DNA from: Renibacterium salmoninarum ATCC 33209
Lineage (GTDB): Bacteria; Actinomycetota; Actinomycetes; Actinomycetales; Micrococcaceae
Direction: 5' to 3'
Length of the DNA stretch: 64,000 nucleotides
Assembly (NCBI RefSeq): GCF_000018885.1
Contig: NC_010168.1
Span: 620,001 to 684,000 of the forward strand
Shown here: piece after piece, positions 5,019 through 45,421 of the stretch
Layout: each line of letters starts with the position of its first letter
How positions within the stretch are numbered: position 1 is the first letter of the stretch
Position numbers and translations under genes: made by a program
Notes under the pieces: generated by a model
Seen by the model: only the letters and a program-made list of their open reading frames with translations
Told to the model about the DNA's origin: nothing
Databases searched by the model: none

Positions 5019-5076
5019 TCAGTCAAAGCTTCAGTGTGCTGCCGCATTTAGTGAGCAGGTGCGCTAAGGTTTTTGA

Positions 5077-7425: not shown

Positions 7426-8578
7426 ACGCGGCAATACCCAAGCCCAGAATGGCAAGGCCCGCGCCAACCAGTGCGGGAGCCACATAACCCCAACCCCAAG
7501 CGATAACGAGTCCACCCAGGAACGCGCCTAATGCGTTGGCGATATTGAGCGCGGAGTGATTCATCGAAGAGGCAAGTGATTGGGCTCCCGGTGAAACATC
7601 GAGGAGCCTGGTCTGTAGCGCAGGTACTAGCATGGCGCCAGAGGCTCCGATCAAGAGCACCAACGGCAAAGCCGACCAGATCTGATGAACGCCAATGCTG
7701 AAAATTAGCAGGATCGCAGCGATGACGCCCATCATGATGTAGATGCTGCCCATCACGGAGCGATCTGCCATTCGGCCGCCAACAACATTTCCAATCACCA
7801 TGCCAACGCCGTAAATTGCGACGACGAGGGGTAGCCAATCGGAAGGCAAACCGGTCACTTCGGTCATGGTCGGCGCAATATAGGCATAAACGGCGAAAAA
7901 GCCGCCAAAGCCAACAATGCCGATCAAGAGCGCAAGCCACACCTGAATACGCTTCAACGCGCTCAACTCGCCCCGCACCGATGCACCTTCGGCTGCAGGT
8001 TGTGCCGGGATAAAAATCCAGAGGCACAGCACGGTAATTGCGCCAATAATAGTCACCAAAATAAAGAGCAACCGCCAACCGAATTGCTGACCAATAAAGG
8101 TCGCCAAGGGTACGCCGACGACGTTAGCGATGGACAGTCCCAGCATCACCATTGAAATGGCACGACCGCGCTTGGTCGGTGAGACCAGCGACGCGGCAAG
8201 CACTGCGGCCACGCCGAAGAATGCGCCGTGTGGTAGCCCCGAAATAAAGCGAGTGATCAACAAGTACCAGAAATCTTGTGCCAAGAACGAAGAGAAGTTG
8301 CCCAAGGTGAACAGCACCATAAGCGCGATGACCACACGTTTTCTTGGCATTTTGGCTGCAACGGCTGCCAGAATGGGCGCACCAACAACTACGCCCAATG
8401 CGTAAGCTGAAATCAGGTGGCCGGCTTCCGGGATAGTGACATTTACCCCCTGGGCCACATTGGGCAACAAGCCCATCATGGCGAACTCGATGGTGCCAAT
8501 GCCAAACCCGCCCATGGCAAGCGAGATGATCGCTAAGGCCACATGGCGAGAGGAAAAATTGTGTTGAGGCTGTTGCAT
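7373..8578 (-). CDS. MFS exporter of the AraJ/DHA1 type
   Basis: 401 residues with twelve hydrophobic segments. GTIEFAMMGLLPNVA in TM1 and RFISGLPHGAFFGVAAVLA are characteristic of the AraJ/YdhP-like DHA1 subfamily. It is a probable sugar or drug efflux protein in the cytoplasmic membrane. The gene is intact, unlike its close relative at 18631-19824. The C-terminal end overlaps the end of the cation transporter gene on the other strand. A divergent Nudix pseudogene starts 78 bp from its ATG. Confidence 0.9.
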   Translation of the reverse strand: MQQPQHNFSSRHVALAIISLAMGGFGIGTIEFAMMGLLPNVAQGVNVTIPEAGHLISAYALGVVVGAPILAAVAAKMPRKRVVIALMVLFTLGNFSSFLAQDFWYLLITRFISGLPHGAFFGVAAVLAASLVSPTKRGRAISMVMLGLSIANVVGVPLATFIGQQFGWRLLFILVTIIGAITVLCLWIFIPAQPAAEGASVRGELSALKRIQVWLALLIGIVGFGGFFAVYAYIAPTMTEVTGLPSDWLPLVVAIYGVGMVIGNVVGGRMADRSVMGSIYIMMGVIAAILLIFSIGVHQIWSALPLVLLIGASGAMLVPALQTRLLDVSPGAQSLASSMNHSALNIANALGAFLGGLVIAWGWGYVAPALVGAGLAILGLGIAAFSGRVDRRQKQPATQLP

Positions 8579-8655
8579 GCTGCTCTTTCCGGTGCGGTGT
8601 TTGCAGCTCTATTCCATCACGGCCTTTGCTAAAGAACAGACCGTAGAATGCCTTT

Positions 8656-9090
8656 GTGAAGTCAAAGCAAATTGTAGGTGGGGCTATTGTCGATGATCTG
8701 CAGCGACCGAGCCGTCTTTTGGTAGCTCGACGCAGCGCACCCGAGTCATCGCTGGGGCTGTGGGAATTCCCCGGCGGTAAGGTCGAAATCGCCGAACTAC
8801 CTGAGGCTGCTTTGCATCGTGAACTTGCCGAAGAGCTGGGGGTTCAAGTCAAACTTGGTCATGAAGTGACCGGACCGGATACCGATGGTTGACTGCTTGG
8901 CAATGGTGCACGGATGCGGGTTTGGTTTGTCCAGATTATCCGCGGGGAACCATTGCCGCTGGAAGATCATGACCAGCTTCAATGGATGCCGCTGTCTGAA
9001 GAATCAGCACTGATGGCGTTGCCGTGGATTCCGGCAGATTTTCCGATCGTGGCGGAGCTGCTCAGGTCAGTTTATGGGCGAAGCGCATAA
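8656..9090 (+). pseudogene. Nudix (MutT-like) hydrolase, interrupted by TGA
   Basis: The first 78 codons encode a MutT-type protein with a complete Nudix box (G-x5-E-x7-REL-x-EE-x-G, in GKVEIAELPEAALHRELAEE). An in-frame TGA stands at 8890-8892, after PDTDG. Reading through gives LLGNGARMRVWFVQII and a normal C-terminus (PLEDHDQLQWMPLSE) to the TAA at 9088. Relatives usually have Trp at that place (GWLLGNG), so TGG to TGA is likely. The enzyme would clean oxidised nucleotides such as 8-oxo-dGTP. The 3' end overlaps the VOC gene. Confidence 0.85.
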
Positions 9091-9442
9091 GGTTTCCGTC
9101 CGGATCCACATGGGCACCCTCACGTAATCCATATTCAGTGTCAACGGGCATGCCCGTTGGGCAACGAATCTCAGCGTTATCCGAAACTGCTTTCCATTGC
9201 AGCGCACGTGCGTCTGCATCGTCGACTTCAATGAAAGCCGCCGAGAAGTTAGTTTCTGGGTCAATGCCGGGCGCTTGCCACAGGTGGATGCGTACCGCGC
9301 CAAGTTTGGCGTAGGCATAGTCTTCATCGCCGTCGTACTTTGCGACCTCAAACCCCAGGGCCTCGTAATGACTGATTGATCGTTCTAAATCAACTACCGG
9401 AAAGACCGGAGCGATCTGGGCGAATTTGACCGTGTTGACCAT
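9062..9442 (-). CDS. VOC-family (glyoxalase/bleomycin-resistance fold) protein
   Basis: 126 residues from the ATG at 9442. The protein shows the paired beta-alpha-beta-beta-beta modules of the vicinal oxygen chelate fold: FPVVDLERSISHYEALGFEV at the start, and YGLREGAHVDPDGNLMRFAH at the end. Similar to bleomycin-binding-like proteins, but the ligand is unknown. A longer frame to 9526 exists without family support. The Shine-Dalgarno sequence is weak. It is convergent and overlapping with the Nudix pseudogene. Confidence 0.8.
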   Translation of the reverse strand: MVNTVKFAQIAPVFPVVDLERSISHYEALGFEVAKYDGDEDYAYAKLGAVRIHLWQAPGIDPETNFSAAFIEVDDADARALQWKAVSDNAEIRCPTGMPVDTEYGLREGAHVDPDGNLMRFAHKLT

Positions 9443-9764: not shown

Positions 9765-10945
9765 AACAGCGTCGCCTCGGTAACTGCAGATGCGGAAGTA
9801 GCGACCGTTTCACGCTTTCGTTGCGTGCTGCTTTTGCCAAAGGGCTGACGAATCGGCCAACGCCCTTTTGTCGCTGAAATTGGCAAGCCCCCCTCGGGGT
9901 ACTGCGCTTCTTCTTTTCGCGCGTCGAGAACTGTTTCATGCATATAGGCTTGTGTGCCGCCGAAACCGTGTCTGGTTTTGGCGGCATTCACTTTCTGCGC
10001 CAACCATTGCCGGTACTCTTTGGGCGCATAGGAGCCATTTCCGTAGAGGCCCCGATATTTGCTGACCAACCCTGGATAATTCTTTGCAAGCCAGGACATG
10101 AACCAGTCTTTGGTGCCAGGACGCAAATACAAAGCACCCGCAGTGACGCCAGTCGCCCCGGCTGCCGCCAAGGGGGCCAGCAGAGAATCTAGCGCCTCAT
10201 CACTATCGGTGAGCCACGGCAATATTGGCATCGCCATCACTCCGCAAGGTAGGCCGGCAGATCTCAACCGCGAGATCAACGCCAATCGGGCTTTTGGCGA
10301 AGGGGTGCCGGGCTCAAGAACCTTGGCCAGTGCCTCATCGGTGAGCGCCAGCGAGATGCCCATGCCAATGGGGACCTGGCGAGCTGCATCTTTAAGCACT
10401 GGAATATCCCGACCCAATAGCGTGCCTTTGGTTAAGATAGACAGTGGGCTGCCTGACTCGGCCAGGGCTTTGATGATTCCTGGTATCAGTTAGTAGCGAC
10501 CCTCCGCCCGTTGATAGGGATCGGTGTTGGTTCCCAACGCTACGTGGTGCCGGCCCCAACTAGGCTTTGCCAACTCAACCCGAAGAACTTCGACAGCATT
10601 TACTTTGACTACCACTTGAGAGTCGAAATCCAGCCCCGGATCGAAATCGAGGTAGGTATGGGATTTTCGGGCGAAACAATAAACGCAGGCGTGAGAACAG
10701 CCTCGATAGGGGCTGATGGTCCAGCTGAACGGCATCGTTGAAGAGGCGGGCACCTTATTCAGTACGGATTTAGCGGCTACTTCGTGGAATGCGACGCCAG
10801 CGAATTCGGGGGTGCGGACGGTGCGTCAAAAACCTTGCATTGGCAGCAGAGATGGCCGCTCGGGACGGGATGAACTCTGAGCCGAGCTATCGGTGCTGAT
10901 ATTGAGGGCCTCTTGAGCGAGGACTTGTTGGGATTCCCATCGCAT
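9761..10945 (-). pseudogene. Radical SAM protein (Rv2578c-like), two in-frame stops
   Basis: Read from the ATG at 10945, one frame covers the whole gene but has TGA at 10826-10828 (after MQGF) and TAA at 10490-10492 (after AEGRY). The middle part carries the iron-sulfur cluster motif YRGCSHACVYCFARKSHTYL (CxxxCxxC), then GTNTDPYQRAEGRY; the last part continues LIPGIIKALAESGSPLSILT. Order and content match the Rv2578c-like radical SAM family common in actinobacteria, whose substrate is not established. Full length would be about 394 residues. Both stops must be read through for function, so I call it dead. Confidence 0.88.
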
Positions 10946-14419: not shown

Positions 14420-14611
14420 GAGATCTCCTATCAACGACGCTGATTGCTCCCACCGTAACTGTCTAAGCTGAGTGTGCCCAGCCTTTGGCATTCAGTTCCG
14501 CTCAGCGCGGATCAGATCGCACAGCGCGGGGGATGGGCGCCGGATTCCACACCGGAGGCCGCGATTGAATAGACTGATTCCGGCATTCCCACGATCAAGG
14601 TGCGTTCTTTT

Positions 14612-15676
14612 ATGACCGAGCAACTCCCGGCGGATTCCGCCGCTCCCGATCCGACCGACGAAGCTGCGCTTGCGCTCGCCGTCAGTAGCGCCCTTGAGGC
14701 GATTGCCGCGGCCAGCGATCTGGAACAGCTCAAAGAGGCTAGGCTGGCGCATACCGGAGAAAAATCACCGCTAAGTCTGGCTAACCGTGGCATTAAAGAC
14801 ATCGCCAAAGAACTCAAAGCCACCGCTGGCAAGCTCATGGGAGCTGCCCGCGGGCAGGTCAACCAAGCGCTTGCGGCGAGGACTGAGATTCTCGAAGCCG
14901 AAGCCGCGGAACGGATCTTGGTCGAAGAGGCTGTGGACGTCACGGCAGCTCCGCGCCGGCGTCGTGCGGGGGCGAGGCACCCGCTGGCCACCCTTCAAGA
15001 GCGGGTCAGCGATATTTTCGTCGGCATGGGTTGGGAGATCGCCGAAGGTCCTGAGCTGGAATCTGAGTGGTTTAACTTTGATGCGTTGAACTTCAAACCT
15101 GATCACCCAGCTCGGGAACTTCAAGACACATTCTTCGTAGAACCTCCGGAAGCGCATTTGCTGTTGCGCACGCATACCTCTCCGGTTCAGGTCCGCTCCA
15201 TGCTGGAGCGCGAGTTGCCGATCTACGTACTGTGCCCGGGAAAAACCTTCCGCACCGACGAGCTCGACGCAACGCACACGCCGGTTTTCCACCAATTTGA
15301 AGGTCTCGCGATTGACAAGCACCTTTCAATGGCGGATTTGCGCGGCACCTTGGAACACTTTGCGCGGCAGATGTTTGGTGATGAGGCGCAAATTCGACTT
15401 AGGCCCAATTATTTTCCGTTTACCGAGCCCTCGGCCGAGCTGGACATTTGGCACCCTGGTGCCAAGGGTGGCCCGCGTTGGATCGAGTGGGGCGGTTGCG
15501 GCATGGTGAATGAAAATGTGTTGCGCGCCGCCGGAATTGACCCAGAAGAATACTCAGGATTTGCCTTCGGTATGGGCATTGAGCGGACGCTGATGTTCCG
15601 CAACGAAGTCGCCGATATGCGCGACATGATCGAGGGCGATATTCGCTTCAGCCAGCACTTCGGGATGGAAATCTAA
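14612..15676 (+). CDS. pheS: Phenylalanine-tRNA ligase alpha subunit
   Basis: 354 residues. The coiled-coil N-terminal region (about 1-90) is followed by the class II catalytic core: motif 2 around HQFEGLAIDKHLSMADLRGT and motif 3 around GFAFGMGIERTLMFRNEV. With PheT it charges tRNA-Phe as an alpha2beta2 tetramer. The ATG at 14612 is preceded by AAGGTG; the GTG at 14600 lies inside that site and is less likely. The stop overlaps the pheT start by one base (TAATG). Confidence 0.97.
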   Translation: MTEQLPADSAAPDPTDEAALALAVSSALEAIAAASDLEQLKEARLAHTGEKSPLSLANRGIKDIAKELKATAGKLMGAARGQVNQALAARTEILEAEAAERILVEEAVDVTAAPRRRRAGARHPLATLQERVSDIFVGMGWEIAEGPELESEWFNFDALNFKPDHPARELQDTFFVEPPEAHLLLRTHTSPVQVRSMLERELPIYVLCPGKTFRTDELDATHTPVFHQFEGLAIDKHLSMADLRGTLEHFARQMFGDEAQIRLRPNYFPFTEPSAELDIWHPGAKGGPRWIEWGGCGMVNENVLRAAGIDPEEYSGFAFGMGIERTLMFRNEVADMRDMIEGDIRFSQHFGMEI

Positions 15677-18219
15677 TGCGTATACCTTTATCTTGGCTGC
15701 GTGAATTCGCTGCCGTTCCGGCCGACGCCACCGCCGAAGATGTGATGGCTGATCTAGTCCGGGTAGGACTGGAAGAAGAAGCAGTGCACCGGCCCACCGA
15801 CTTTCTTTCTGGGCCAATTGTGGTTGGCCAAGTGCTTTCGCTGGTCAAAGAACCGCAAACTAATGGCAAAACGATCAATTGGTGCCAGGTTCGCGTTGTG
15901 CCCGAGGGCGCAACTCAAACGCTCGAGGGCGATGGAATTTCTCCGGACGGAATTCAAGGCATAGTGTGCGGTGCACACAACTTTGTTGAAGGTGACAAGG
16001 TCATTGTGACACTGCCTGGTGCTGTGCTGCCTGGAGACTTCCGGATCTCGCCGCGTAAAACTTACGGGCACACCTCCGCTGGCATGATTGCGTCCTCGCG
16101 TGAGTTGGGCATTGGCCAAGATCACGATGGCATTGTGGTGCTGTCAACGCTTGGACTCGATCCCGAACTTGGTAGCTCGGTTTACGAACTTCTTGGCTTG
16201 GATGATCATGCGGCCGAAGTCAACGTGACACCGGATCGAGGATATGCGTTCTCGATCCGCGGCATCGCTCGTGAATACGCGCATGCCACTGGCACGGAGT
16301 TCGTCGATCCGGCTGCGCAGCCGACGGTTGTTCCGGCAGATTCTGCGGGCTTCCCGGTCCGTCTTGAAGACGGCGCGCCAATTTACGGCAAGCCTGGCGT
16401 CGATCGTTTTGTTGCGCGAATTGTGCGCGGTATTGATGTTTCCGTACCCACTCCGCAGTGGATGGCATCGCGATTGCGGCTTGCTGGTATCCGATCGATT
16501 TCGCTGCCGGTAGACATCTCAAACTATGTGATGTGGGAGCTAGGTCAGCCGCTGCATTTCTACGATTTGAACAAATTGTCTGGACCGATTGTGGTCCGCC
16601 GCGCGGCCGCGGCAGAGTCCTTGACTACTCTCGATGGCAAAGCACGCAAGCTCGACGTCGAAGATCTGCTGATCACCGACGATTCTGGTCCGGTTGGCAT
16701 TGCTGGTGTGATGGGCGGGGCGGCGACCGAAGTCTCCGCGAGCACGCAGGATGTGCTCATCGAGGCAGCGCACTTTGAAGAAATCACGATCGCGCGGAGC
16801 CGGCGTAGGCACAAATTATCTTCGGAAGCTTCGAAGCGTTACGAACGTGGCGTTGACCCGTTGGTCGCAGATATCGCCACGCAGCGCGCGGTCGATTTGC
16901 TCGTAGAGCTCGCCGGTGGCACGGCCGATCCGCACGGTACCGACGTGTTTTCTGGATTTACTCCGAAGACCATTGGATTCGTCGCTGGTTACCCGGCTCG
17001 ACGCGTGGGGATTCAATTCACTGACGAGCAGATCGAGCGTGCGCTGACTGATATTGGTGCCACTGTTGGCCAATCAGATGGAATCTACGGCGTCAGCGCG
17101 CCGTCTTGGCGCCCAGATCTGGAGACCAAAGACGACCTCGCCGAAGAAATCGCCCGATTGGTCGGCTACGACCAGATTCCGGCAACGCTGCCTGTTGCGC
17201 CGCCGGGACGAGGGCTCAGCCGAGTACAGCAGCAACGTCGTCGGACGCTGCAAGCGCTAGCCGATTCGGGACTCACCGAGGTGCTGGCCTATCCGTTCGT
17301 CTCCAAAGCAATGAATAACACCTTTGGCGTGGCTGAAGGTGGAACTGAGGCGCGTGCGGTGAAGCTCGCGAATCCAATCAGCGAAGAATTCGGTTTCTTG
17401 CGTACTTCGGTTCTGCCTGGCTTGCTTGAGGTGGCGAAACGTAATCTATCGCGTGGCTTCCGTGACTTAGCTCTTTTTGAGGCAGGCTCGGTGTTCTTGC
17501 CGGCTGAAACGATGGGTACCGCCTCGATTCCGCCACTGGGCGCTAGGCCCGCAGACGAAGTTCTGGATGAACTCTATGCCGGCATCCCGGATCAGCCATT
17601 GCACATTGCGGCTGTTCTCATTGGTTCCGATTCGGCGGCTGCGCCGGATCATAAGCCACGGTCGTGGGACTACGCTGATGCACTCGACGTGGCCAAGCTT
17701 GCCGCTGAAGTCTTAGGCGTAGACATCGTAGCTGTCCAGGGCAGGCACCAAGCTTTCCACCCCGGTCGCACCGCTCAATTGGAACTCCGAGATGGCACCT
17801 TACTTGGCTACGCCGGCGAGCTTCACCCGAAGCTGCTGGCTGAGTCAGATCTTCCAGCACGAACGATTGCGGTGGAATTCGATCTTGATGCGCTCTTCGA
17901 AGCGGCTGCCGATGTGATCGTGGCCAAGTCGATTTCAACTTTCCCGTTGGCGACGCAGGATGTGGCCTTGGTGGTCGACGCCGAGGTGCCGGCCAGCGAG
18001 GTCCTCGAGGTGTTGCGTACTGGCGCGGGCGAGCTACTCGAAGAGGTCGCTTTGTTCGATGACTACCGCGGGCACAACGTGGGTGAAGGGAAGAAGTCGT
18101 TGGCCTTTGGTCTTCGGTTCCGAGCCACTGACCGGACTTTGACTGCGGAAGAAGCCACCGCGGCTCGTGAGAGCGCCGTTGCTGCAGCTGCCGCCGCCTT
18201 CGGTGCGGTACTGCGCTAA
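15676..18219 (+). CDS. pheT: Phenylalanine-tRNA ligase beta subunit
   Basis: 847 residues, full family length. The N-terminal tRNA-binding fold spans about 40-155 (GIQGIVCGAHNF, LPGAVLPGDFRI), then B3/B4 editing domain and B5 domain, the catalytic-like core, and the C-terminal ferredoxin-fold anticodon-binding domain (FPLATQDVALVV to the end). It is translationally coupled to pheS. The gene is intact. Confidence 0.97.
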   Translation: MRIPLSWLREFAAVPADATAEDVMADLVRVGLEEEAVHRPTDFLSGPIVVGQVLSLVKEPQTNGKTINWCQVRVVPEGATQTLEGDGISPDGIQGIVCGAHNFVEGDKVIVTLPGAVLPGDFRISPRKTYGHTSAGMIASSRELGIGQDHDGIVVLSTLGLDPELGSSVYELLGLDDHAAEVNVTPDRGYAFSIRGIAREYAHATGTEFVDPAAQPTVVPADSAGFPVRLEDGAPIYGKPGVDRFVARIVRGIDVSVPTPQWMASRLRLAGIRSISLPVDISNYVMWELGQPLHFYDLNKLSGPIVVRRAAAAESLTTLDGKARKLDVEDLLITDDSGPVGIAGVMGGAATEVSASTQDVLIEAAHFEEITIARSRRRHKLSSEASKRYERGVDPLVADIATQRAVDLLVELAGGTADPHGTDVFSGFTPKTIGFVAGYPARRVGIQFTDEQIERALTDIGATVGQSDGIYGVSAPSWRPDLETKDDLAEEIARLVGYDQIPATLPVAPPGRGLSRVQQQRRRTLQALADSGLTEVLAYPFVSKAMNNTFGVAEGGTEARAVKLANPISEEFGFLRTSVLPGLLEVAKRNLSRGFRDLALFEAGSVFLPAETMGTASIPPLGARPADEVLDELYAGIPDQPLHIAAVLIGSDSAAAPDHKPRSWDYADALDVAKLAAEVLGVDIVAVQGRHQAFHPGRTAQLELRDGTLLGYAGELHPKLLAESDLPARTIAVEFDLDALFEAAADVIVAKSISTFPLATQDVALVVDAEVPASEVLEVLRTGAGELLEEVALFDDYRGHNVGEGKKSLAFGLRFRATDRTLTAEEATAARESAVAAAAAAFGAVLR

Positions 18220-20364: not shown

Positions 20365-21256
20365 TCAGTAGAGATCAATCTCGCCGGGGGCGAAGAGTTC
20401 CGCGGCGTGACCAACCACCAGTCGATCCGGCACGCCAACTAGTTCAACGTCCTTTTCTGGGTAGTCAAAGCGGGCGAGCACATGACGCATCGCTTCGAGC
20501 CGGGCACGTTTTTTGTCGTTAACTCTTTACCACGGTCCAAGGCGAATGCCTGGTGTCGGTCTTACGAAACATCATCTCTTTCGCGGCGGTGTACGCGTCC
20601 CATTTATCTAGCGAGGCTAAGTCCATGGGGGAGAGTTTCCACTGACGTACCGGGTCTACCTGCCGAATAGTGAACCGGGTGAGTTGTTCTGACCGCGAGA
20701 CCGAAAACCAGAATTTGACCACGTCAACGCCATCGTTGACCAACATCTTTTCGAAAGCCGGGGCTTGGCGCAGAAACTCAGCGTATTGACCGTCAGTACA
20801 GAAGCCCATAACCCTTTCTACCCCGGCCCTGGTGTACCACGATCGATCGAACATTACGATCTCGCCAGCCGCGGGCAAATGGTAAACATAGCGCTGGAAG
20901 TACCATTGGCTTTGTTCACGTGCGGTGGGCTTCTCCAGGGCGACGACTCGAGCCCCACGCGGATTCATTTGTTCAGTGAACCGTTTGATAGTGCCACCTT
21001 TGCCGGCCGCATCGCGGCCCTCAAATAACAGCACGATTCTGCGACCGGTGTCTTTGACCCAATTTTGCAGTTTCAGTAGTTCGATTTGGAGCAGCCGCTT
21101 ATCCATTTCGTAGATTTCCCGAGCAAGTCGAGCGTCGTAGGGATAGCCTTCCCTCCAAGTATCTACCGCAACACCATCTGGCCCGATAAGTACCGGATCG
21201 TCGTCGTCGGTGTCCAAAACACTGAACCCGGGGAGCGCGAGCTTCATTTCAACCAT
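20365..21256 (-). pseudogene. Polyphosphate kinase 2 family protein, frameshifted near the C-terminus
   Basis: From the ATG at 21256 the frame encodes the PPK2 core: Walker A (FEGRDAAGKGGTIKRF), FDRSWYTRAGVERVMGF and the lid region. After SPWTVVKS an extra T makes TAA (about 20518-20521). In the next frame the normal end follows (NDKKRARLEAMRHVLARFDY to the TGA at 20365). PPK2 transfers phosphate between polyphosphate and nucleotides. The shift removes about 50 residues. The frame upstream of 21256 is not family sequence. Activity is doubtful. Confidence 0.85.
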
Positions 21257-21278
21257 GACCTGACCATAGAGTGGGGGA

Positions 21279-21950
21279 GTGAACCACCGATTAATGCCTG
21301 GTGAACCGGTGAGGTTCGAGGACGTCACCGTGCGGGCCGTGCAGCTCTCCAAAGTCGACGCCGAGCCGGCTTGGCTGAGTTCGGCCGAGAGTCTGCGAGC
21401 TTCGCGGTTCAGCAGCCAAGAACTGCACGACCGTTTCGTGGCAAGACGACTCGCGATCCGCATCTTCGCGGCCAAGCTATTGGGTGTCTCTCCCGAGCGC
21501 CTCGAGTCGCATTACTCCTGCCCAGACCACGGCGCGGGCGTGCATTTAGACCACGGGCGTCCTGGTTTCGCTTTGGTTGGCGAAGTTATGCCAATAGCTT
21601 TGAGCAGTTCAAGTAGCGCGGATTGGACGTTACTGGCCGGGATAGCCAGCTCGAGGCCGAAAATCGGGATTGATCTAGAGCAGATAGCGCGTGTTGGCTT
21701 CGAAGGTTTTGACGATGCGGTGCTGACGGCACAAGAGAAATCGCGTTGTCTTAGCCTTCCAGCTGAGGATAGACCCAGTTTTCGAGCGAATTGTTGGGGT
21801 GCAAAAGAAGCATTGCTCAAAGCTGACGGCCGCGGACTCCGGATTGACCAGAGCACAATTGAGTCGTATTCGCCGCAGGTCCGGTTGCTCGATTCTCAGT
21901 CTTTGGGGATGCCCGCCGGTTTTTCCGCCGCTTTAGCCGTGCAAGACTAG
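21279..21950 (+). CDS. 4'-phosphopantetheinyl transferase
   Basis: 223 residues of the Sfp/HetI type. The metal and CoA-binding motifs are present: KIGIDLEQI and WGAKEALLKADGRGL. The enzyme attaches phosphopantetheine to carrier domains of synthetases. GTG at 21279 follows a G-rich stretch; ATG at 21294 is an alternative. It lies close to the Pls-like NRPS pseudogene (23335-27319), whose T domain would be an obvious substrate, but it may also serve other carrier proteins. Intact. Confidence 0.85.
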   Translation: MNHRLMPGEPVRFEDVTVRAVQLSKVDAEPAWLSSAESLRASRFSSQELHDRFVARRLAIRIFAAKLLGVSPERLESHYSCPDHGAGVHLDHGRPGFALVGEVMPIALSSSSSADWTLLAGIASSRPKIGIDLEQIARVGFEGFDDAVLTAQEKSRCLSLPAEDRPSFRANCWGAKEALLKADGRGLRIDQSTIESYSPQVRLLDSQSLGMPAGFSAALAVQD

Positions 21951-21960
21951 CCGTGCAGGA

Positions 21961-23338
21961 TTAGCGACTGCTAGCCGACTGAGCTGGAAACGCAGGTAGC
22001 TCGGCTTGATAAAGCCAAGGCGTCAACAACGCGCGGGAATCTAGGCCGGGCTCTAACTCGTCGGCCAGCGCAAAGAACTCGGACGTGCTCACCGAACTGT
22101 GCGCATAGCGCTCCGTCCAGCTTCGCAGCAGCGCGAAAAATGCCTCATCACCACGGGCGTTGCGTAAGGCATGCAATGTTAAGGAGCCACGCTTATAAAC
22201 TCGATCATCGAACATTTTGACCGCACCGGGGGAGCCAATGATCAGATCCTGTGCTTCGGCGGCCAGCTTTTGGTGCGCTGCTTTTGCCCGGTCTGCGGCT
22301 TTCATCAAACCAGAAGCCTCGGACCAAATCCATTCTGCGTAGCAGGCAAAACCTTCGTGAAGCCAGATGTCCTGCCAGCGCGCGAGCGTCAAGGAATTGC
22401 CAAACCATTGGTGTGACAACTCATGAGCGATCAAGCGTTGCGCATCCCAGCCGGAATTCAAATGATTGCGCCCGATGATCGACAACGACTGAGCCTCAAG
22501 CGGTATGTCTAGCTCGTCTTCAGTAACCACCACGGTGTATCCGGCGAAGGGGTATGGCCCAAAGCAAAACTCAAAGGTATCCATCATGGCTCGCTGCTTT
22601 TGCCAGGCCTTCAAGGGTGCGCGGGACCAAAGCGGCGGGCACCGCAACGGCTAGCGGAACGGGCTCACTCGGTGCCCGATGCGTTCCCCGTTGCTGCTCG
22701 GCAAGCGGCAAAAGTTGGTAGCGGCCAATCTGCACCGTAGCGAGGTAAGTTGCCATCGGTTCGGGTTGTTCATAAACCCAGGTCTGCCGGCTGGATTTGC
22801 TCGAATGGGAAATCAGGGTGCCATTGCAAACTGGTCGGTAGTTGACGTCGGTGGTGACAGAAATGCGAAAGCTAGCCTTTTGACTGGGGTGATCATTACA
22901 AGGAAACCAGCTGGGTGCTCCGGTTGGCTGCCCCGCAACTAAAACGCCGTCGGCTAGTTCTTCCCAGCCAACATCGCCCCAGATGCCGTCGCTGGGTGCT
23001 GGATTCCCTTCGTATCGCACCTCGATGCTAAAGGGCTGCCCCTTTGCGATCGCTTCCGCCAACGTCACGACCAATTGCCCGGTGCGTTGGGCGTATGTAG
23101 CAACTTTTAGCGATTTTCCCGAGCTTTTGACCGCAATTTTTCCAGCGCGCAAACCATCCAGATTGAGCACTATCGATTTCAATTTGGTTGTTGTGACGGC
23201 GTCGATGACTGCCTTGCCGATGAGCCGATTGCTTGCCAGCCGACAATCGAGATCCAAATCATAATGTTGGACGCGGAAGTCATCGGTGCCATGCCCCGGA
23301 GTGTAAGGGTCAAAGGGTTCTAAAGTTGCTGTGCTCAT
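21961..23338 (-). pseudogene. M1-family zinc aminopeptidase, frameshifted
   Basis: The N-terminal part (23338 to about 22595) reads SFRISVTTDVNYRPVCNGTL and ends in [12 protein letters not shown]. An extra G near 22597 shifts the frame; removing it gives [20 protein letters not shown]. The rest carries the gluzincin site [10 protein letters not shown] and, 18 residues on, [11 protein letters not shown] (HExxH-x18-E). About 458 codons in all. The ATG overlaps the stop of the Pls-like gene (ATGA), so the two were co-translated. In poly-lysine producers the adjacent Pld peptidase is, as I recall, of this type. Confidence 0.88.
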
Positions 23339-26300
23339 GAATTCTGTTCAGTAGTCTGTATTGGTCCTTGAGCCGCTGGTCCCTTCCAAGGGCTGACCGG
23401 ATTGCCAATCCAGTAGCTTCCAGCTGGCACGGTTTCACCGCGCATCACCAAAGATGCAGGGCCAACCGTTCCGCCCCGGGCAATCCGGGCCGCGGGCAGG
23501 ATTACGCTGTGGGGGCCCATCGTGGCACCCTCTTCTAGGGTAACGGTGTCTAGGGCCATGATTCGGTCATGGAAGAGGTGAGTCTGAACTACGCAGCCCC
23601 GATTCACCGTTGAGCTTTCACCCAGGGTCACCAGATCGGCCTCCGGCAGCCAATACGATTCGCACCAGGTTCCGTGCCCAATTTTGGCACCAAGCGAACG
23701 TAGCCACCAGACAAGAGCCGGCGTACCACTTGCTGCCCGGGCAAACCAGGGAGCTGCCACCGACTCTATACAAGGTGTCCACTACCTCGCTAAGCCAAAT
23801 AAACGAGCTTCACAACGGATGCTCGCCAACCCTAATCCTGCCCACCAAGAGCCATTTAGCTACGACGGCGCTGCCCGCAGCAACCGCACCAGCGAGCATC
23901 ATGACGACTCCGCCCAGTACCGCCGCGACAAAGTATCCAGTGTGACTTGCCAGCCAAGAAAACAAGCTCAAGACGCTTACTGTGATGGCGACGGTCAGCA
24001 TCGTAGGAACGAATCGACAAATCTCCCAGAGTGCTCTGGCGACTTTCAGTTTTCTCGGCGGTTCGAAGGTTCGCGAAGCATCGGAACTTTGCGCCACCCG
24101 ACGCAGGCGTACCGGTGGTGATCCAAGCCAGGACGTACCGGCTTTTGCTTTCGCGGGCGTCGCTGAAAGTACCGCGACCAGTGAGTTCTTCGGCACAGAT
24201 CTGCCCGCGGCAGTCATACCGGAGTTGCCAAGAAAAGCGCGTTTGCCAATTTTCGCCGGCGCAATATGGACAAAGCCGCCGCCAAGTTCGTAGGAGGCAA
24301 CCATCGTTTTATCGGCCAAAAATGCGCCATCGCCGACCGTGGTCATGGAAGGTAGCAGCAACACGGTAGAAGCTTCAACGTTCTTCCCGATCTTGGCCCC
24401 GAGTAAGCGCAACCAAATCGGGGTGAATAGCGAGGCGTAAATCGGGAAGAGTAAGTCTCTGGCTAAATCCAGCACGCGTTCAGTCGCCCAGACTTGCCAA
24501 CCAATTCGGCTGCGCACCGGGTGGAACCCTTCCCGTAGGCCAAGGCTAAGTAAGCGGACGGTGCCGAGAATGAGCAGCATCAGAATCAGGAACCAGATCA
24601 GCGTTGCAAGGGGAACGGCAAGCAATAACTGAAGGTAAATATGATCCAGCGCGGGGAAAGCGGGCAGCCCGACGCCGGCGGGCGAGCGCCAGATTGCCGC
24701 AGCCAAACTTAGGCCGAAGAAACCAGCAATTGCCGCGGCAAGAAAGGGAATCATTGACAACACGGTTGACGCTGAAGCGTAAATTCCTAGCCAAAGGCGG
24801 TTACTACGTTGCGGTACCTCTGGCCAGTCGGGACGAGCTTTGCCGATCCGTTACGCCGGAGCGCCGGAATACTGTTGGCCAGCGCGTACTTTACCCAGTA
24901 CCGCAGAGCCCGCGGCAACTTGGGCGCTTCTGCCCACTCGGGTGCCGGGCATTAAGGTGCTGCGCGCACCGACGGTTGCGTTAGCACCCACCGCAATCCT
25001 GCCAATATGCACATTGTCGCCGTCGATCCACCAACCGGACAGATCAACTTCGGGTTCGATCGAGGCGCCCTCACCCAAGCTCAGGAAACCAGTGACCGGG
25101 GGTACCGAATGCAAGCTGACGTCTTTGCCTATTTTTGCGCCCAAAGCGCGTGCGTAATGTGACACCCAAGGTGCACTCGCTAATGAGACGGCTTGGGCTA
25201 AATCAGCAATTTGCTCAGCCAGCCATAGTCGCAGGTGCACGCGTCCGCTGCGTGGATAGACGCCGGGAGTGACATCACGCAATAGGATCCGGGCCGCGAG
25301 CACTGAAATTCCCATCCGTCCCCAGGGGCTAACGAATACCGCCCAAGTAGCCAGAATCCACCACCAACTCACAGTTGGCAGATGCCATTCAGCAGTGCCC
25401 TCAGTGCCGCTGAGGAAAGCGAGGATATTACTGATGACCATGAGATAAGTCAGCCAACGCATACCTACCAAAATATGCAACGGAAGGCCCATAAGGGTTT
25501 GAAAAACTTGCGACTTACGGGCCGTTCGGCGCACGTCACGGACGACGGCGGGCGCAGCGTTTTGGTAATCAGGAACCGACTGTCTGGCCAGATCCACCAA
25601 GGCGCCGATCCTGGGGTGGGCATAGATGTCAGCAACGGTGATCGTTGGGTAGCGTACCCGAAGCGCGGAGACTAGTTGTGCCGCGGCAAGCGAGCCGCCA
25701 CCTTGCGCGAAGAAATCTGCGTCCAGATTTGCCGCATCGCCGCCCAAGATCGAATTCCACTGGTCCAGGATCCACTGGGAATCTGGTTCTAATTCCAAGT
25801 CGGCTACGTTGTCGCCACTTCCAGAACCGAGCAAAGGCCAAGGCAAAGCGTTTCGGTCTACCTTGCCACTGGTCTTAGTCGGCAAAGTCTCCACGACGGT
25901 GAGTAACGGTATCAATGCGGCAGGTAATTCTTTGCCGAGCAGTCCACGACAACTGGCCAGGTCTACCGGTTCCGACGCCGAATCTGCTACCAGATATCCC
26001 ACCAAAATCTGGTTGCCACCGGCAGTAGTTTTTACTGCGGCCGCGGCACCGAAGATTCCGGGTAAGCCTTGCAGCGCAGCATCGATTTCGCCGAGCTCTA
26101 TTCGCCGACCGCCAAGCTTCACTTGTTCATCGGCGCGACCCATGAAAATCAGCCCAGCCAGCTCAAACCGGACTAAATCGCCGCTACGATAGGCCCGTTG
26201 CCAGCCAAGGCTGGGCATCGGGGCGTATTTTTCGGCGTCTTTAGCCGGGTCTAAATAGCGAGCTAGCCCGACGCCGCCGATGATTAGTTCGCCAATTTCA

Positions 26301-27319
26301 CCCTCGGCGACCGGCACACCATTTTTATCTACAACGGCTAGGTCCCAGCCATCTAATGGCAAACCAATGCGCACTGGTCGAGCGTCTGGCCCGCTATGGC
26401 CGCCTAGGGGAGCTGCGCAGGCAACAACTGTCGCCTCGGTGGGTCCGTAGGTATTCCATACTTCGCGATCTTCTACCGCGAGCCGATCGGCAAGATCTGG
26501 CGGGCACGCTTCGCCACCGAAAATCAGCAGTCGAACATTTTCTAACGCTTCTACCGGCCATAACGCGGCAAGCGTCGGCACGGTGGAAACGACCGTGATT
26601 CCATGCGAAATAAGCCACGGGCCTAAGTCCATGCCAGTCCGTACAAGCGAGCGAGGTGCAGGCACCAGGCAGGCGCCGTGCCGCCAGGCGAGCCGCATTT
26701 CTTCGCACGAAGCGTCGAAAGCTACCGACAGTCCGGCCAATACCCGATCATTGCTATTTATCGGCTCTGCTTGTAAAAATAAACGAGCTTCAGCGTCAAC
26801 AAATGCCGCAGCAGATCGATGCGATACCGCGACCCCTTTGGGCGTACCAGTCGAACCCGAGGTGAAGATGATCCAAGAATCGTCGTCTACGGTGGGCGTG
26901 CGCGGGTGGGGAAACGGCGCAGGCCGATCTTTACCGACTAGGATTTCGCCAGTGTGCAACACTCCGGCGACTTTGGCTTCACTGAAGACAAGTTTGGCGC
27001 GCTCATCTGGGTCATCGGCGTCTACTGGAACGTAAGCGGCACCGATCATGAGCACCGAAAGGATCGCAATGTAGAGCTCTGCAGTTCCCGAGGGAATCCG
27101 CACGCCAACCTTGTCGCCGGCGCCTAATCCCGCCAGATGCAGGGTCTTGGGGTAGGCCTTAATCTCTTGCAGAAGTTCGGCATAACTCAGGGACCGAGTG
27201 CCGTCATCGAGCGCTGAAGCATCTGGAAAAGCCTCGGCGCTCGCGTTGAGGATGTCGATCAGTTTCCGTTCCGGCGGGGTGGCCTGCGAGCCGGGCAACT
27301 GAGGGGCATAAACGTTCAT
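23335..27319 (-). pseudogene. Pls-like non-ribosomal peptide synthetase, three lesions
   Basis: About 1,328 codons, the size of epsilon-poly-L-lysine synthetase (about 1,319 as I recall). Order: adenylation domain (IFTSGSTGTPKGVAVSHRS, FDASCEEM, NTYGPTEATV, YRSGDLVRFELAGL, KTSGKVDRNALP); carrier domain with Ser in AQGGGSLAAAQLV near residue 542; then membrane helices alternating with three left-handed beta-helix (hexapeptide) domains. Lesions: TAA at 24851 after YSGAPA, TGA near 23810 (GEHPL*, probably Trp) and an extra A near 23767. It overlaps the genes on both sides by ATGA, forming one operon with the oxidoreductase and M1 peptidase. Confidence 0.9.
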
Positions 27320-28278
27320 GGTTTCAGGAGTACCTTGCCGGTTGTTTTGCGTCCTTGGAGATCCCGATGCGCTTGAGCTGCGTCAGCGAGTGGATAGCTA
27401 GCGCCAATCCGAACGGAAAGCTCACCTTTGAGCACTGCGTCGAGAACGTCTGCCGAGCGCCAGCGGCGCTCCTCGGCGTCGAGAAGGTAAGAAGCCATTG
27501 TTGGGCGAGTCAAGAACAACGATCCACCGCGATTGAGGCGCTGAATATCGAAGGACGGTACCGGGCCCGAAGCGGCACCGTACAGCACCAGCGTTCCGCG
27601 AATCTTGAGCGCCGCTAAGGAACCGTCGAAAGTGTCCTTGCCGACGCCGTCGAACACTACGTCGACGCCGCGGCCTCCGGTCAATTCACGAACCTTTTCG
27701 GAGAAATCCTCATAACGCAACACCTGATCTGCGCCAGCTTCTCTGGCCAGAGCTTCCTTTTCATCGTTGGATACGGTGCTGATCACGGTTGCCCCCTTTG
27801 CTTTGAGCAGCTGGATCAGCAGCAGGCCAACTCCGCCCGCGCCAGCGTGCACCAACACGGTATGACTAGGCTGTACGGCAAAAGTTTAATTGATTAAATA
27901 ATGCGCAGTGATGCCCTGTAAGGGCAGCGCCGCCGCAGTATCCAGATCTATTCCGGCGGGTACCGGGAGCGCTTTTGCGGCGTCGAATAACGTGTATTCA
28001 GCATAAGATTCGGCACCCTCTGTGCAGGCGACGTGGTCACCTACCGCGAAGTTTGTTACGCCTTCACCCAGAGCGGCCACAACGCCAGCTGATTCAGATC
28101 CTGGCGTGAACGGTAACTCGATGGGATAGATACCTTCGCGTTGATAGGTCTCGATGTAGTTGACGCCGATCGCGGCAACCTTAACGAGTAGCTGACCTGG
28201 ACCGGGCTGTGGTGCAGCAACATCGGTGATCTGCAAGACCTCAGGGCCCCCAGCAGTAGTCGCAACGATGGCTTTCAT
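27316..28278 (-). pseudogene. Quinone oxidoreductase (zeta-crystallin-like MDR), TAA inside
   Basis: One frame of 320 codons with TAA at 27886-27888, between GITAHYLIN and TFAVQP. The first part is the GroES-like domain (GVNYIETYQREGIYPIELPF); the second has the NADPH-binding loop (VHAGAGGVGLLLIQLLKAKG) and the usual end. TCA (Ser) to TAA is likely. No catalytic zinc ligands are expected in this subfamily. Its last codons overlap the start of the Pls-like gene (ATGA). Confidence 0.88.
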
Positions 28279-28424
28279 AGCGGCACCCCTCTATAACTCT
28301 TTAGTTTTTGTACTAGTTCCCATCGTAGGCTTAGCCGGTGACATTCAGATGAACAGCATGACGGGCCGTGGCGTGCATAGAAATCGCACGGCGCACGGCC
28401 CGCTCAGCTTCGAGGTTTAGTTCG

Positions 28425-29323
28425 TTAGTTCTTGCTCACGATCCATGAATCGTTGGCGTGCTGCACTACTTGCGACAAATCACAACGGAAGCTTGATTGA
28501 CCGGCCTTATAAACGCTGCTGTTCGACGACGTCGGTGCGCTCCACTGGCCGTCGATTTTGAGCTTGTACTCGGTGCTTTGGAACGACTTTGTGCCCATAC
28601 GCATTGCAGTAATTGGCTGAGGTGCCTGCCGGCCCGTTCGTGTAAAGCTCAAAGATGTTCCAGCTTCGGTTGGTATCGCCCTGATCGGAGCCGCTTTGGG
28701 TGAAGAGGGTGTCCCATTTTTGCGTGCGCACATTGAATAATTGCGCCGACCAGGTGTTGCTGCTGGCGCTGGTTTGCTCCAGCTTGCCGAGGTAGGAATC
28801 GAGCCCATTTTTCTTCACGGTGTAATTGGCAACGAAGGTTGAATCGATATTTACCGACTTGGCTACATCGATTGAATCGCACCAAATCCCAATCCCAAGC
28901 CCAGACCTGCGGGGTATGTCCGCCGTTATAAGCAGCGACCATCTCAATGCACGAATTAGGTGCCTTCATGGTCGGAGCGTAGAGCGTATCCGAGCTGAAG
29001 GTGTACCCGGCTGCTACTGAGTTGTAGGCCTGCTGGCCCGTCATCGGCACATTGCTGGTAAAGACGCCCCAAGCTGGGTGATCTGGCACGGCTGCATCAG
29101 TGTTGGTGTCGAGGCCTTTGGCCGCGCTGCGCTCCTGTGTCCGGATGCGGGCAAAATGGTCGGCGGCACTGGTCAACGTGGTGCCGTCGTGCGCGCCGAT
29201 GACCGAGCTTGTTGATGCGGTTGTTGAGGGAGCAGCCTCGGCGTTACCAGCAATGACGCCGATAAAAAGTGAAGTAGCAAGAAGTCCGGTAGTGGCTAGT
29301 GCAATACAAAGCGGTTTTTCCAC
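28425..29323 (-). pseudogene. Secreted protein of unknown function, two frameshifts
   Basis: The N-terminus is a signal peptide (GTG at 29323; hydrophobic stretch ending AGNAEA). The next part includes MKAPNSCIEMVAAYNGGHTP and VWAWDW. The frame then shifts near 28885 into WCDSIDVAKSVNI and a region rich in Ser, Asn and aromatic residues, and again near 28605 into MGTKSFQSTEYKLKIDGQW and SSFRCDLSQVVQHANDSWIV. Conserved-looking Cys residues suggest an extracellular disulfide-bonded domain. I do not recognise the family. A carbohydrate- or surface-binding role is only a guess. Confidence 0.7.
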
Positions 29324-29491
29324 GGTTCAGTCCAATCGGGAAGCCGGAGAATCGAGGATTTCAGCGGACTACGCGCCATTGCGCAGCCCACCAACTTAGA
29401 ACGATAGGTATTCGGGCTGGACGCAAGCTTCGCGCCTGGTCGGAATTACCTGGAATATCTACCGATCATCCACCCACTTTGAATGCTTGAC

Positions 29492-29988: not shown

Positions 29989-32218
<2,230 letters not shown>

Positions 32219-32222
<4 letters not shown>

Positions 32223-33132
32223 GTCCCCTAACTAGTGCAACCAGTGCGCCAAATAAAGCCGAAATCCTGATTGAAGCGTTGCCCTGGATCCAGCAGTTCG
32301 CCGGCACCGTCGTCGTCGTCAAATACGGCGGAAACGCGATGGTGAGCGATGAACTGCGCCAGGCTTTTACCGAGGACATGGTCTTCCTGCACCATGTAGG
32401 CATCAAACCGGTGGTGGTGCATGGCGGCGGCCCGCAGATCAACTCGATGCTCGGCAAACTAGGCATTGAATCTGAGTTCAAAGGCGGCCTGCGGGTCACC
32501 ACTCCGGAAGCAATGGAAGTAGTCCGGATGGTACTCGCCGGGCAGGTGGGTCGCGAGCTGGTGGGGCTGATCAATGCGCACGGACCATACGCGGTAGGCC
32601 TTTCCGGTGAAGACGGTGCGCTTCTGCAAGCAGTGCGTACCGGAACGGTAGTTGACGGCGTCGAAGTCGACTTAGGCCAGGTTGGTGAAGTGATCGGCGT
32701 CAATCCGGGCTCGATCCTCGACTTGCTAGATGCCGGTCGAATCCCGGTGATTTCCACCATCGCACCCGAAGTTGGTAAGGCCTCGAGCGTACTCAACGTC
32801 AATGCGGACACCGCGGCTGCGGCCCTTGCCGTGGCGCTCCAAGCCTCACGGTTGGTGATCTTGACCGACGTCGAAGGTCTGTATCGAAATTGGCCAGATA
32901 AGGACTCGCTCATCAGCGCATTGAGCGTCAAAGAGCTTCGCGAGCTATTGCCGTCCTTGGCCTCCGGCATGATCCCCAAAATGACCGCTTGCCTCAAAGC
33001 AGTCGATGGAGGGGTGCGCAGGGCTTCCGTCGTGGACGGACGCAGCCCGCATTCAATGCTCTTGGAAATATTCACTACCGCAGGTAATGGCACCCAAGTC
33101 TTCCCAGAAGCTGGGCCGCAAGGAGAAAAGGC

Positions 33133-33136
<4 letters not shown>
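32219..33136 (+). CDS. argB: Acetylglutamate kinase
   Basis: 305 residues. Amino-acid kinase fold with [10 protein letters not shown] at the phosphate site, [14 protein letters not shown], and the C-terminal lysine-bearing stretch [20 protein letters not shown]. It phosphorylates N-acetylglutamate and is normally feedback-inhibited by arginine. Overlaps argJ and argD by 4 bp each. Confidence 0.97.
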
Positions 33137-35926
<2,790 letters not shown>

Positions 35927-35947
35927 ACCTCGCCACGAACCCTCTTG

Positions 35948-36017
35948 GGATGCATTTTCGGCATACGGATGCCGTTGCAACTAGTTAGAAGACCATCCGG
36001 ATGCTGAAAATGCATCC
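35948..36017 (+). promoter_or_regulatory. Long inverted repeat in the argG leader
   Basis: Arms of 24 bp (35948-35971 and 35994-36017) match with two mismatches around a 22-base loop. Each arm contains an ATGC-7 bp-GCAT palindrome. It can act as two opposed ArgR sites or as an RNA hairpin ending 16 bp before the Shine-Dalgarno sequence of argG. Confidence 0.65.
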
Positions 36018-36045
36018 GAACATCAATAAATATGAAGGAGTACCT

Positions 36046-38675
<2,630 letters not shown>

Positions 38676-45200: not shown

Positions 45201-45421
45201 AAAGTGTGTAGCGCAGTTTTCGATGATGCTGGTGCATCTAAGCCCCAGACGTCGTCGATGAGCTGTTCCGGGCTCAGTGTCCGTCCGGGGGCCAACGCCA
45301 ACGCAATGACCAATGACTTAGCACGGGGACCGGGTGGCGTAGAAGTAGAACCGGTTACCGATTCTAAGAGCACAGGTCCCAGCAGACGCAATTGTGCTTG
45401 CTGGGGAAGGGGAATGCTCAT
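42202..45421 (-). pseudogene. SARP/AfsR-like regulator (wHTH-BTAD-NB-ARC), frameshifted
   Basis: About 1,073 codons. N-terminal winged helix (LRLLGPVLLES, LSPEQLIDDVWG, LHTLISRTRSF), bacterial transcriptional activator domain to about 240, then an NTPase domain with Walker A VLGPGGLGKTRLAMEI, Walker B LLFMDNCEHV and VLTTSRAPLEI. After TDRTAPER the frame slips near 43938 into RLELELAG and stop; the correct frame resumes AVIDWSWSLLGKSEQAALRR and continues as a TPR-like helical region. The remaining 509-residue fragment keeps the DNA-binding and NTPase parts. It is a good candidate to control drrAB. ATG overlaps the stop of the epimerase remnant. Confidence 0.87.

What the first reader, a model, noticed from the sequence alone, without database searches (positions are those of the whole stretch)
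20365..28278. Relic poly-amino-acid synthetase operon: oxidoreductase, Pls-like NRPS, M1 peptidase, near a live PPTase
Three genes joined by ATGA overlaps encode a quinone oxidoreductase, a single-module synthetase with adenylation, carrier and three beta-helix domains between membrane helices (about 1,328 codons, like epsilon-poly-L-lysine synthetase), and a gluzincin peptidase like the poly-lysine degrading enzyme. A PPTase that could activate the carrier is adjacent and intact. Every operon gene is broken by one to three point lesions, so the ancestor probably made a cationic or other homopolymer that this lineage has abandoned.
Basis: partly seen in the sequence, partly recalled or inferred. 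Interest (0 to 1): 0.75.

Follow-up and report, generated by a model that had tools for sequence, protein, structure and literature searches.

The report
Recently broken poly-lysine synthesis operon
This is the freshly broken copy, in what is very probably the salmon pathogen Renibacterium salmoninarum, of an operon that its free-living relatives keep intact and probably use to make the antimicrobial polymer epsilon-poly-L-lysine; it shows a bacterium dropping a natural preservative as it becomes host-restricted, but the kind of system is already known.

Summary
On the minus strand at 21964-28278 lie a quinone oxidoreductase, a Pls/PosA-family single-module synthetase and an M1 peptidase, with four disabling lesions: two in-frame stops and two frame breaks. 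The synthetase fits an epsilon-poly-L-lysine synthetase. Its pieces match the Pls/PosA terminal domain almost end to end, the solved Pls adenylation domain is its best structural match, and its pocket DAESIGTVVK is identical in all 84 intact relatives examined. Those 84 also have the M1 gene directly downstream. In 30 of 80 loci the flanks are the same, pheST and arg genes, so the gene is ancestral here. First, the oxidoreductase looks like a neighbour: it is next to pls in 39 of 84 relatives, and one sibling keeps it after losing pls, peptidase and PPTase. Second, the decay is recent: first- and second-position changes show no clear excess over intact arg/phe genes, and the estimated unconstrained share of the branch is -4 to 3% with upper bounds of 3.5-9%. 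Ordinary in kind; modest interest as a dated loss.

The parts
27319..28278 (-). NADPH:quinone oxidoreductase (PIG3/QOR type), interrupted by one in-frame stop near 27886; overlaps the start of pls, probably not part of the pathway
   Evidence: frames; TIGR02824 / NF008024 on both pieces (each below cut-off); PF08240, PF00107; near pls in 39 of 84; one search kept in G077 without pls
24854..27319 (-). Pls piece a: adenylation domain (pocket DAESIGTVVK), carrier domain with its serine, start of the terminal domain; ends at an in-frame stop (24851-24853)
   Evidence: (PDB 7wew, 635 bits)
23813..24850 (-). Pls piece b: membrane helices and hexapeptide-type (acetyltransferase-like) segment, TIGR02353 positions 213-556; ends at a frame break
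23338..23781 (-). Pls piece c: last hexapeptide-type segment, TIGR02353 positions 570-695, in another frame; its stop overlaps the start of the peptidase gene (ATGA)
22574..23338 (-). M1 peptidase piece N (N-terminal M1 domain), up to a frame break
   Evidence: PF17900
21964..22650 (-). M1 peptidase piece C with HELSH zinc motif and third ligand in HEGFA, in another frame
   Evidence: (PF01433)
21279..21950 (+). Sfp-type 4'-phosphopantetheinyl transferase, open frame, convergent with the peptidase gene; could prime the Pls carrier
20365..21256 (-). Polyphosphate kinase 2; main frame to about 20522, C-terminal part in another frame; neighbour, not part of the operon (bounds approximate)
14600..18219 (+). 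pheS-pheT, left boundary of the conserved locus
29998..38675 (+). arginine biosynthesis genes (argC, argJ, class III aminotransferase argD, argG, argH by Pfam; argB/F/R named by position only), right boundary of the conserved locus

Best explanation
The locus is a recently inactivated, vertically inherited epsilon-poly-L-lysine operon. In the intact relatives the adenylation domain activates L-lysine as an adenylate, and the carrier serine, primed by the neighbouring PPTase, holds it as a thioester. The membrane-embedded terminal domain with three hexapeptide-type (acetyltransferase-like) segments then joins residues through the epsilon-amine and releases the chain outside. The M1 peptidase, translated from the overlapping start codon, trims or degrades the polymer and so protects the producer. 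Here two stops and two frame breaks in the three co-oriented genes end the pathway; the PPTase frame stays open. Shown here by sequence: domain order, pocket, catalytic residues, synteny, lesions, lack of a clear relaxed phase. Taken from published work on Streptomyces and Corynebacterium homologues: the chemistry, the product and the protective role. Inferred: that the ancestor made epsilon-poly-L-lysine, that the PPTase served Pls, and that loss followed the move to a host-restricted life.
For: TIGR02353 (Pls/PosA terminal domain) is covered by the three pieces in order. The best solved match is epsilon-poly-L-lysine synthase 7wew (635 bits), against 187 bits for the poly-ornithine synthetase PosA, 8g95. 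The pocket DAESIGTVVK is the same in 84 of 84 relatives and, read off the alignment, in 7wew; alanine at the second position is the published mark of lysine against ornithine (PMC10522769, passages). The carrier serine is present in 84 of 84 and here. The M1 zinc motif and third ligand are kept. The predicted M1 start lies within 160 nt of the pls stop in 84 of 84. The published S. albulus pldII is translationally coupled to pls and needed for self-protection (PMC9223678, passages). The C. [quoted passage not shown] coelicolor (PMC8117764, two of four parts read). Both pheT and argC flank pls in 30 of 80 loci and in all five same-genus regions. Recent breakage: estimates of the unconstrained share are 3.0% and -1.2% for the operon and 0.0% and -3.7% for pls alone, with bootstrap upper limits of 9.0, 5.4, 6.4 and 3.5%.
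Against: No biochemical product is known for any Micrococcaceae copy in what I read. The substrate call rests on pocket identity. C. variabile itself made no detectable polymer in culture. PldII itself was not compared by sequence. Third-position G+C on this branch is lower in the operon (0.589) than in arg/phe genes (0.639), while the sibling's values are nearly equal (0.837, 0.846), so some weakening of selection on codon use cannot be excluded. A very recent loss and a finished-genome error cannot be told apart from one assembly, although four separate lesions plus other interrupted genes make error unlikely. In 8 Micrococcaceae loci (L011, L021, L028, L029, L031, L032, L033, L080) argC was not found in the held flank, so the locus is not fixed throughout the family. 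The fold of the terminal domain was not modelled (server busy).
Confidence: 0.9

Rival explanations
1. The lesions are sequencing or assembly errors and the operon is intact in the organism.
For: First- and second-position substitutions show about the same constraint as intact genes, as expected if the genes still worked.
Against: Four lesions fall in three adjacent genes of a single-contig genome scored 99.88% complete. Conserved neighbours (pheS, pheT, argC, argG) are unbroken in the same assembly, while other genes of the window are also interrupted (20 of 41 by a crude count with known artefacts). Two otherwise invariant Pls residues away from the junctions are replaced. A review reports many pseudogenes in this species (PMC3364575, passages).
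Confidence: 0.05
2. A shortened synthetase (adenylation, carrier and first part of the terminal domain, 822 codons) still works, for example loading lysine for another purpose.
For: Piece a has a full adenylation domain and carrier with all pocket residues, is the longest open piece and is about as constrained as intact genes.
Against: The pieces after the stop are equally constrained (PLS_b (1+2)/3 = 0.30, PLS_c 0.19, PLS_a 0.31), so selection was on the whole protein until recently. A tryptophan of the adenylation domain that is invariant in 84 relatives is replaced. None of the 84 relatives has a shortened form.
Confidence: 0.05
3. The synthetase made another homopolymer (poly-ornithine, poly-diaminobutyrate or an unreported one); the neighbouring arg operon would supply ornithine.
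For: Adjacency to arginine genes is seen in 37 of 80 loci; the family contains several products (PMC10522769).
Against: The pocket is identical to that of the solved epsilon-poly-L-lysine synthase, with alanine where the poly-ornithine synthetase has methionine and poly-diaminopropionate/diaminobutyrate synthetases have phenylalanine. The peptidase-gene context is published for Pls and is reported as different for the other three synthetases. The held Rhodococcus, Nocardia, Brevibacterium and Microbacterium loci have the same pocket without argC in the flank.
Confidence: 0.05
4. The quinone oxidoreductase is a functional part of the pathway rather than a neighbour.
For: It overlaps pls by ATGA here and in L113/L114, lies within 400 nt in 39 of 84 relatives, and is broken together with pls.
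Against: No match to it in 41 of 84 held loci, among them all Rhodococcus and Nocardia loci (two of the 41, L054 and L064, have under 2 kb of upstream flank), and further away in 4. Sibling G077 keeps it open at the pheT-argC locus without pls, the neighbouring M1 gene and the PPTase.
Confidence: 0.1

Closest known systems
epsilon-poly-L-lysine synthetase Pls with PldII (Streptomyces albulus; Corynebacterium variabile homologue)
   Same: A-T-terminal domain order, pocket identical to the solved adenylation domain 7wew, peptidase gene directly downstream and overlapping (translational coupling is published for S. albulus)
   Different: Broken here; a quinone oxidoreductase overlaps upstream; locus between pheST and arg genes; a PPTase gene converges on the peptidase gene
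Intact pls loci of the same genus group (Psychromicrobium silvestre L004 and unnamed siblings L111-L114)
   Same: Same gene order PPTase - M1 - pls - oxidoreductase - arg; 78-89% identity in piece a; same ATGA overlaps in L113/L114
   Different: Frames open
delta-poly-L-ornithine synthetase PosA (Acinetobacter baumannii)
   Same: Same NCBIfam family name (Pls/PosA) and mechanism class
   Different: [quoted passage not shown] 187 bits to the adenylation domain

Membership tests
epsilon-poly-L-lysine synthetase (Pls) | Adenylation plus carrier domain followed by the Pls/PosA terminal domain, no condensation or thioesterase domain | tested here: met
   over three pieces searched apart; no condensation or thioesterase family among the Pfam matches
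epsilon-poly-L-lysine synthetase (Pls) | Lysine pocket identical or near identical to confirmed Pls | tested here: met
   DAESIGTVVK; 84 of 84 relatives identical; same ten residues read by eye in the 7wew alignment; position assignment by motif anchors (PheA numbering recalled), with spacing close to the PosA residues
epsilon-poly-L-lysine synthetase (Pls) | Three hexapeptide/acetyltransferase-like segments separated by six membrane helices | tested here: inconclusive
   Weak hexapeptide-type matches, below curated cut-offs, in each piece; hydropathy peaks outside the adenylation domain: 6 in the window's pieces, 5 in L004 and L005, 4 in L114; no structure model obtained
epsilon-poly-L-lysine synthetase (Pls) | Peptidase gene of the M1 type directly downstream, translationally coupled | tested here: met
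   ATGA overlap; gene downstream in 84 of 84 relatives, though the exact overlap was checked only in the siblings; coupling itself is inferred
epsilon-poly-L-lysine synthetase (Pls) | Functional open reading frame | tested here: not met
   One in-frame stop and one frame break: a pseudogene of the family
epsilon-poly-L-lysine synthetase (Pls) | Product is epsilon-poly-L-lysine | not testable with these tools
   needs expression of an intact relative and mass spectrometry
M1 gluzincin aminopeptidase / PldII | HEXXH plus downstream glutamate ligand, M1 N-terminal domain | tested here: met
   frame broken
M1 gluzincin aminopeptidase / PldII | Sequence orthology with S. albulus PldII and polymer-degrading activity | not tested
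   PldII sequence not compared; rests on published gene context
Sfp-type PPTase | PF01648 with conserved G-x-D and W-x-x-K-E-A-x-x-K residues | tested here: met

The most novel reading that the evidence does not exclude
Epsilon-poly-L-lysine production is a free-living trait that was shed late and at least twice in the Renibacterium/Psychromicrobium group: by point lesions in the fish pathogen, almost at the tip of its branch, and by clean removal of pls, peptidase and PPTase (but not the oxidoreductase) in a 2.4 Mb sibling. The polymer would then be of no use or a cost inside a host, which would give a handle on its unknown natural role.
Probability: 0.3. Interest if true: 0.5.

Novelty: new member of a known kind. 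Interest (0 to 1): 0.3.

Why it matters
The natural role of epsilon-poly-L-lysine is called less well understood in the literature read here (PMC8117764). An inherited operon that stayed under constraint until very recently, then lost three genes together in a host-restricted species, is a natural knock-out with intact siblings for comparison. It also cautions that genome mining would list fragments here although no product can be expected.

Tried and rejected
Considered and rejected: another NRPS-like family such as A-T-reductase (no reductase domain among the matches; TIGR02353 covers the C-terminal part); recent horizontal acquisition (pheT and argC on either side in 30 of 80 loci and in the same-genus regions); long-decayed relic; oxidoreductase as pathway gene; programmed frameshifting (one frame in 84 of 84 relatives). 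Stops reported inside M1 matches of G026, G097 and G114 appear to be the natural ends of those genes: checked by coordinates for G097, whose match runs 9 nt past the stop, and all five same-genus regions have one open M1 frame.

A first survey of interrupted genes counted antisense frames and is not used. The second (20 of 41) still contains artefacts, at least the long forms of argJ and argH and one antisense frame over argB/argD, and is given only as a rough figure. Fast evolution of the PPTase is similar in the sibling with intact pls and so says nothing on its state.
Full report
Where it is. The window is bases 620001-684000 of a 3,155,250-base, single-contig genome; its G+C is 56.7%. The 2012 review PMC3364575 tabulates 3.155 Mb, 56.3 and one chromosome for Renibacterium salmoninarum ATCC 33209 (passages seen). 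Its genus mates include G129, whose contig length, 1,688,342, is that of the Psychromicrobium silvestre contig behind L004. The species name is therefore an inference, though a strong one.

The observation. On the minus strand the oxidoreductase, synthetase and peptidase read in 2, 3 and 2 pieces. The oxidoreductase has one in-frame stop; the synthetase one in-frame stop and one frame break; the peptidase one frame break. ATGA overlaps link the three genes, and intact siblings L113 and L114 have the same two overlaps. The PPTase on the plus strand is open and keeps all 15 columns that are at least 95% conserved in 40 relatives. The polyphosphate kinase 2 next to it also changes frame near its end.

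What the synthetase is. The NCBIfam model for the Pls/PosA terminal domain is matched at 1-210, 213-556 and 570-695 of 695 by the three pieces in order, each piece being below the cut-off by itself. A whole-genome search that reads through stops gives 494 bits over 1-580, above the curated cut-off, and the remainder as a second match. The adenylation domain's best solved relative is epsilon-poly-L-lysine synthase 7wew at 635 bits; the poly-ornithine synthetase PosA (8g95-8g98, identified as PosA) reaches 187 bits. The ten pocket residues are DAESIGTVVK, the same in 84 of 84 intact relatives and, read by eye from the printed alignment, in 7wew. The positions were set by motif anchors, with PheA numbering recalled. 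Their spacing agrees with the PosA residues named in PMC10522769 up to one extra residue after the fourth position (passages). That paper reports alanine at the second position for lysine enzymes, methionine in PosA and phenylalanine in diaminopropionate/diaminobutyrate enzymes.

The peptidase and the PPTase. The M1 pieces carry the N-terminal and catalytic M1 domains, the zinc motif HELSH and a third ligand 19 residues on; both histidines of HEXXH and the two glutamates are present in all 84 relatives. In Streptomyces albulus pldII is translationally coupled to pls, and cells with repressed pldII began to dissolve (PMC9223678, passages). [quoted passage not shown] coelicolor (PMC8117764, two of four parts of the text read). 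That paper also lists Arthrobacter among genera with Pls homologues. The genome has eight carrier-domain matches, one of them Pls. The NRPS carriers at 116-119 kb and 2.97 Mb sit in open frames whose adenylation or condensation domains are cut short, so whether the PPTase still has an intact NRPS client is open.

Relatives. A scan of genome contigs (84,980 species by its description) found at least 593 stretches that encode a relative, of which the best 80 were kept. Five same-genus regions were added, one of them the same genome as L004, giving 84 distinct loci. In all 84, pls is one open frame and the M1 gene follows on the same strand with its predicted start within 160 nt. Of the 80 loci, 37 have argC in the held flank and 30 have both argC and pheT, as do the five same-genus regions. 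The 43 without argC are the Rhodococcus, Nocardia, Brevibacterium, Microbacterium and other non-Micrococcaceae loci and 8 Micrococcaceae ones (L011, L021, L028, L029, L031, L032, L033, L080). A PPTase match was found in 40 of 85 locus rows, 39 of them on the opposite strand to the M1 gene and 35 within 1.5 kb of it. The oxidoreductase is within 400 nt upstream in 39 of 84, further away in 4, and has no match in the held locus in 41. In the family, 163 of 295 genomes have a match over the Pls/PosA cut-off, which includes other members of that family and this genome; none of the listed matches has a stop inside, the list being cut to the best rows and not showing this genome's. Of six genus mates, five have pls in one open frame. 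The sixth, G077 (2.4 Mb, 60 contigs), has no full Pls match, no M1 match above 34% identity and no PPTase match, but keeps an open oxidoreductase between pheT and argC on one contig.

How old is the break. With G114 as nearest intact sibling and G129 (or G026 where needed) as outgroup, changes unique to this branch were counted by codon position. The ratio of first plus second to third position is 0.38 for the broken operon (191 to 501), 0.29 for pls alone, 0.33 for ten arg/phe genes and 0.63 for ten other open frames of the window; the sibling's own values are 0.54, 0.48, 0.54 and 0.77. Scaling by controls, the share of the branch spent without constraint is estimated at 0.030 (bootstrap -0.047 to 0.090) with arg/phe controls and -0.012 (-0.097 to 0.054) with five further intact genes, and at 0.000 and -0.037 for pls alone. 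The operon thus stayed under selection for nearly all of the branch. Against a perfectly clean picture, third-position G+C is 0.589 in the operon and 0.639 in arg/phe genes here, but 0.837 and 0.846 in the sibling, which could mean weaker selection on codon use. Consistent with a short neutral phase, Pls deviates at 3 of 317 columns invariant in 84 relatives, one of them beside the frame break; six relatives checked the same way deviate at none. The M1 pieces deviate at 2 of 52, both in the last four residues before the break.

Other readings. Sequencing error, a working short form, another polymer, and a pathway role of the oxidoreductase were considered and are listed as rivals. Each is disfavoured by the calls named there, but error in the reference cannot be excluded without reads.

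Novelty. Two searches for Renibacterium with polylysine or poly-L-lysine gave 3 and 4 papers. By their listings none is about this operon, but they were not opened; the 2008 genome paper is not held. PMC11078813 (passages) mentions the gene-cluster class 'NAPAA', with epsilon-poly-L-lysine as its example, in an analysis of Antarctic Micrococcaceae and Dermatophilaceae genomes. The kind of system is therefore well known. What is added is a located, dated loss in a host-restricted relative, a likely second loss in a sibling, and the separation of the oxidoreductase from the pathway.

Noticed in passing
L131 (G077:C63:108001-124000), about 7918-9411: A 2.4 Mb sibling has an open quinone oxidoreductase between pheT and argC, where relatives carry PPTase, M1 gene and pls as well: an apparent clean second loss.
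   Followed up: yes
L129 9887-13968 and L130 9223-11439 (own genome, about 116-120 kb and 2.97 Mb): NRPS open frames with adenylation or condensation domains cut short, so the PPTase's remaining NRPS clients may also be broken.
   Followed up: partly
window 20365-21256: Polyphosphate kinase 2 whose last part lies in another frame; 84-93% identical and in one open frame in four same-genus regions.
   Followed up: partly
window 1-64000: Many other interrupted genes when compared with sibling G114 (20 of 41 by a crude count with known artefacts), for example 5059-5976, 9842-10945, 40285-41310, 42208-45421.
   Followed up: partly
window 28300-29400: About 1.1 kb between the oxidoreductase and the next conserved gene that sibling G114 lacks; overlapping minus-strand frames without any Pfam match.
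   Followed up: partly
L007: A contig labelled as an Acidobacteria bacterium MAG carries a full Arthrobacter-like pls locus with arg and phe neighbours: probably misbinned.
   Followed up: no
genus g3: By a hand count of the rows, none of 24 genomes of unnamed genus g3 (2.0-3.0 Mb) has a full-length Pls/PosA match: another lineage without the gene.
   Followed up: no
window 21279-21950: The PPTase evolves much faster than its neighbours both here and in the sibling with intact pls (38-53% identity within the genus).
   Followed up: no
window 21964-28278: Third-position G+C of the broken operon is 5 points below arg/phe genes in this genome but about equal to them in sibling G114.
   Followed up: no
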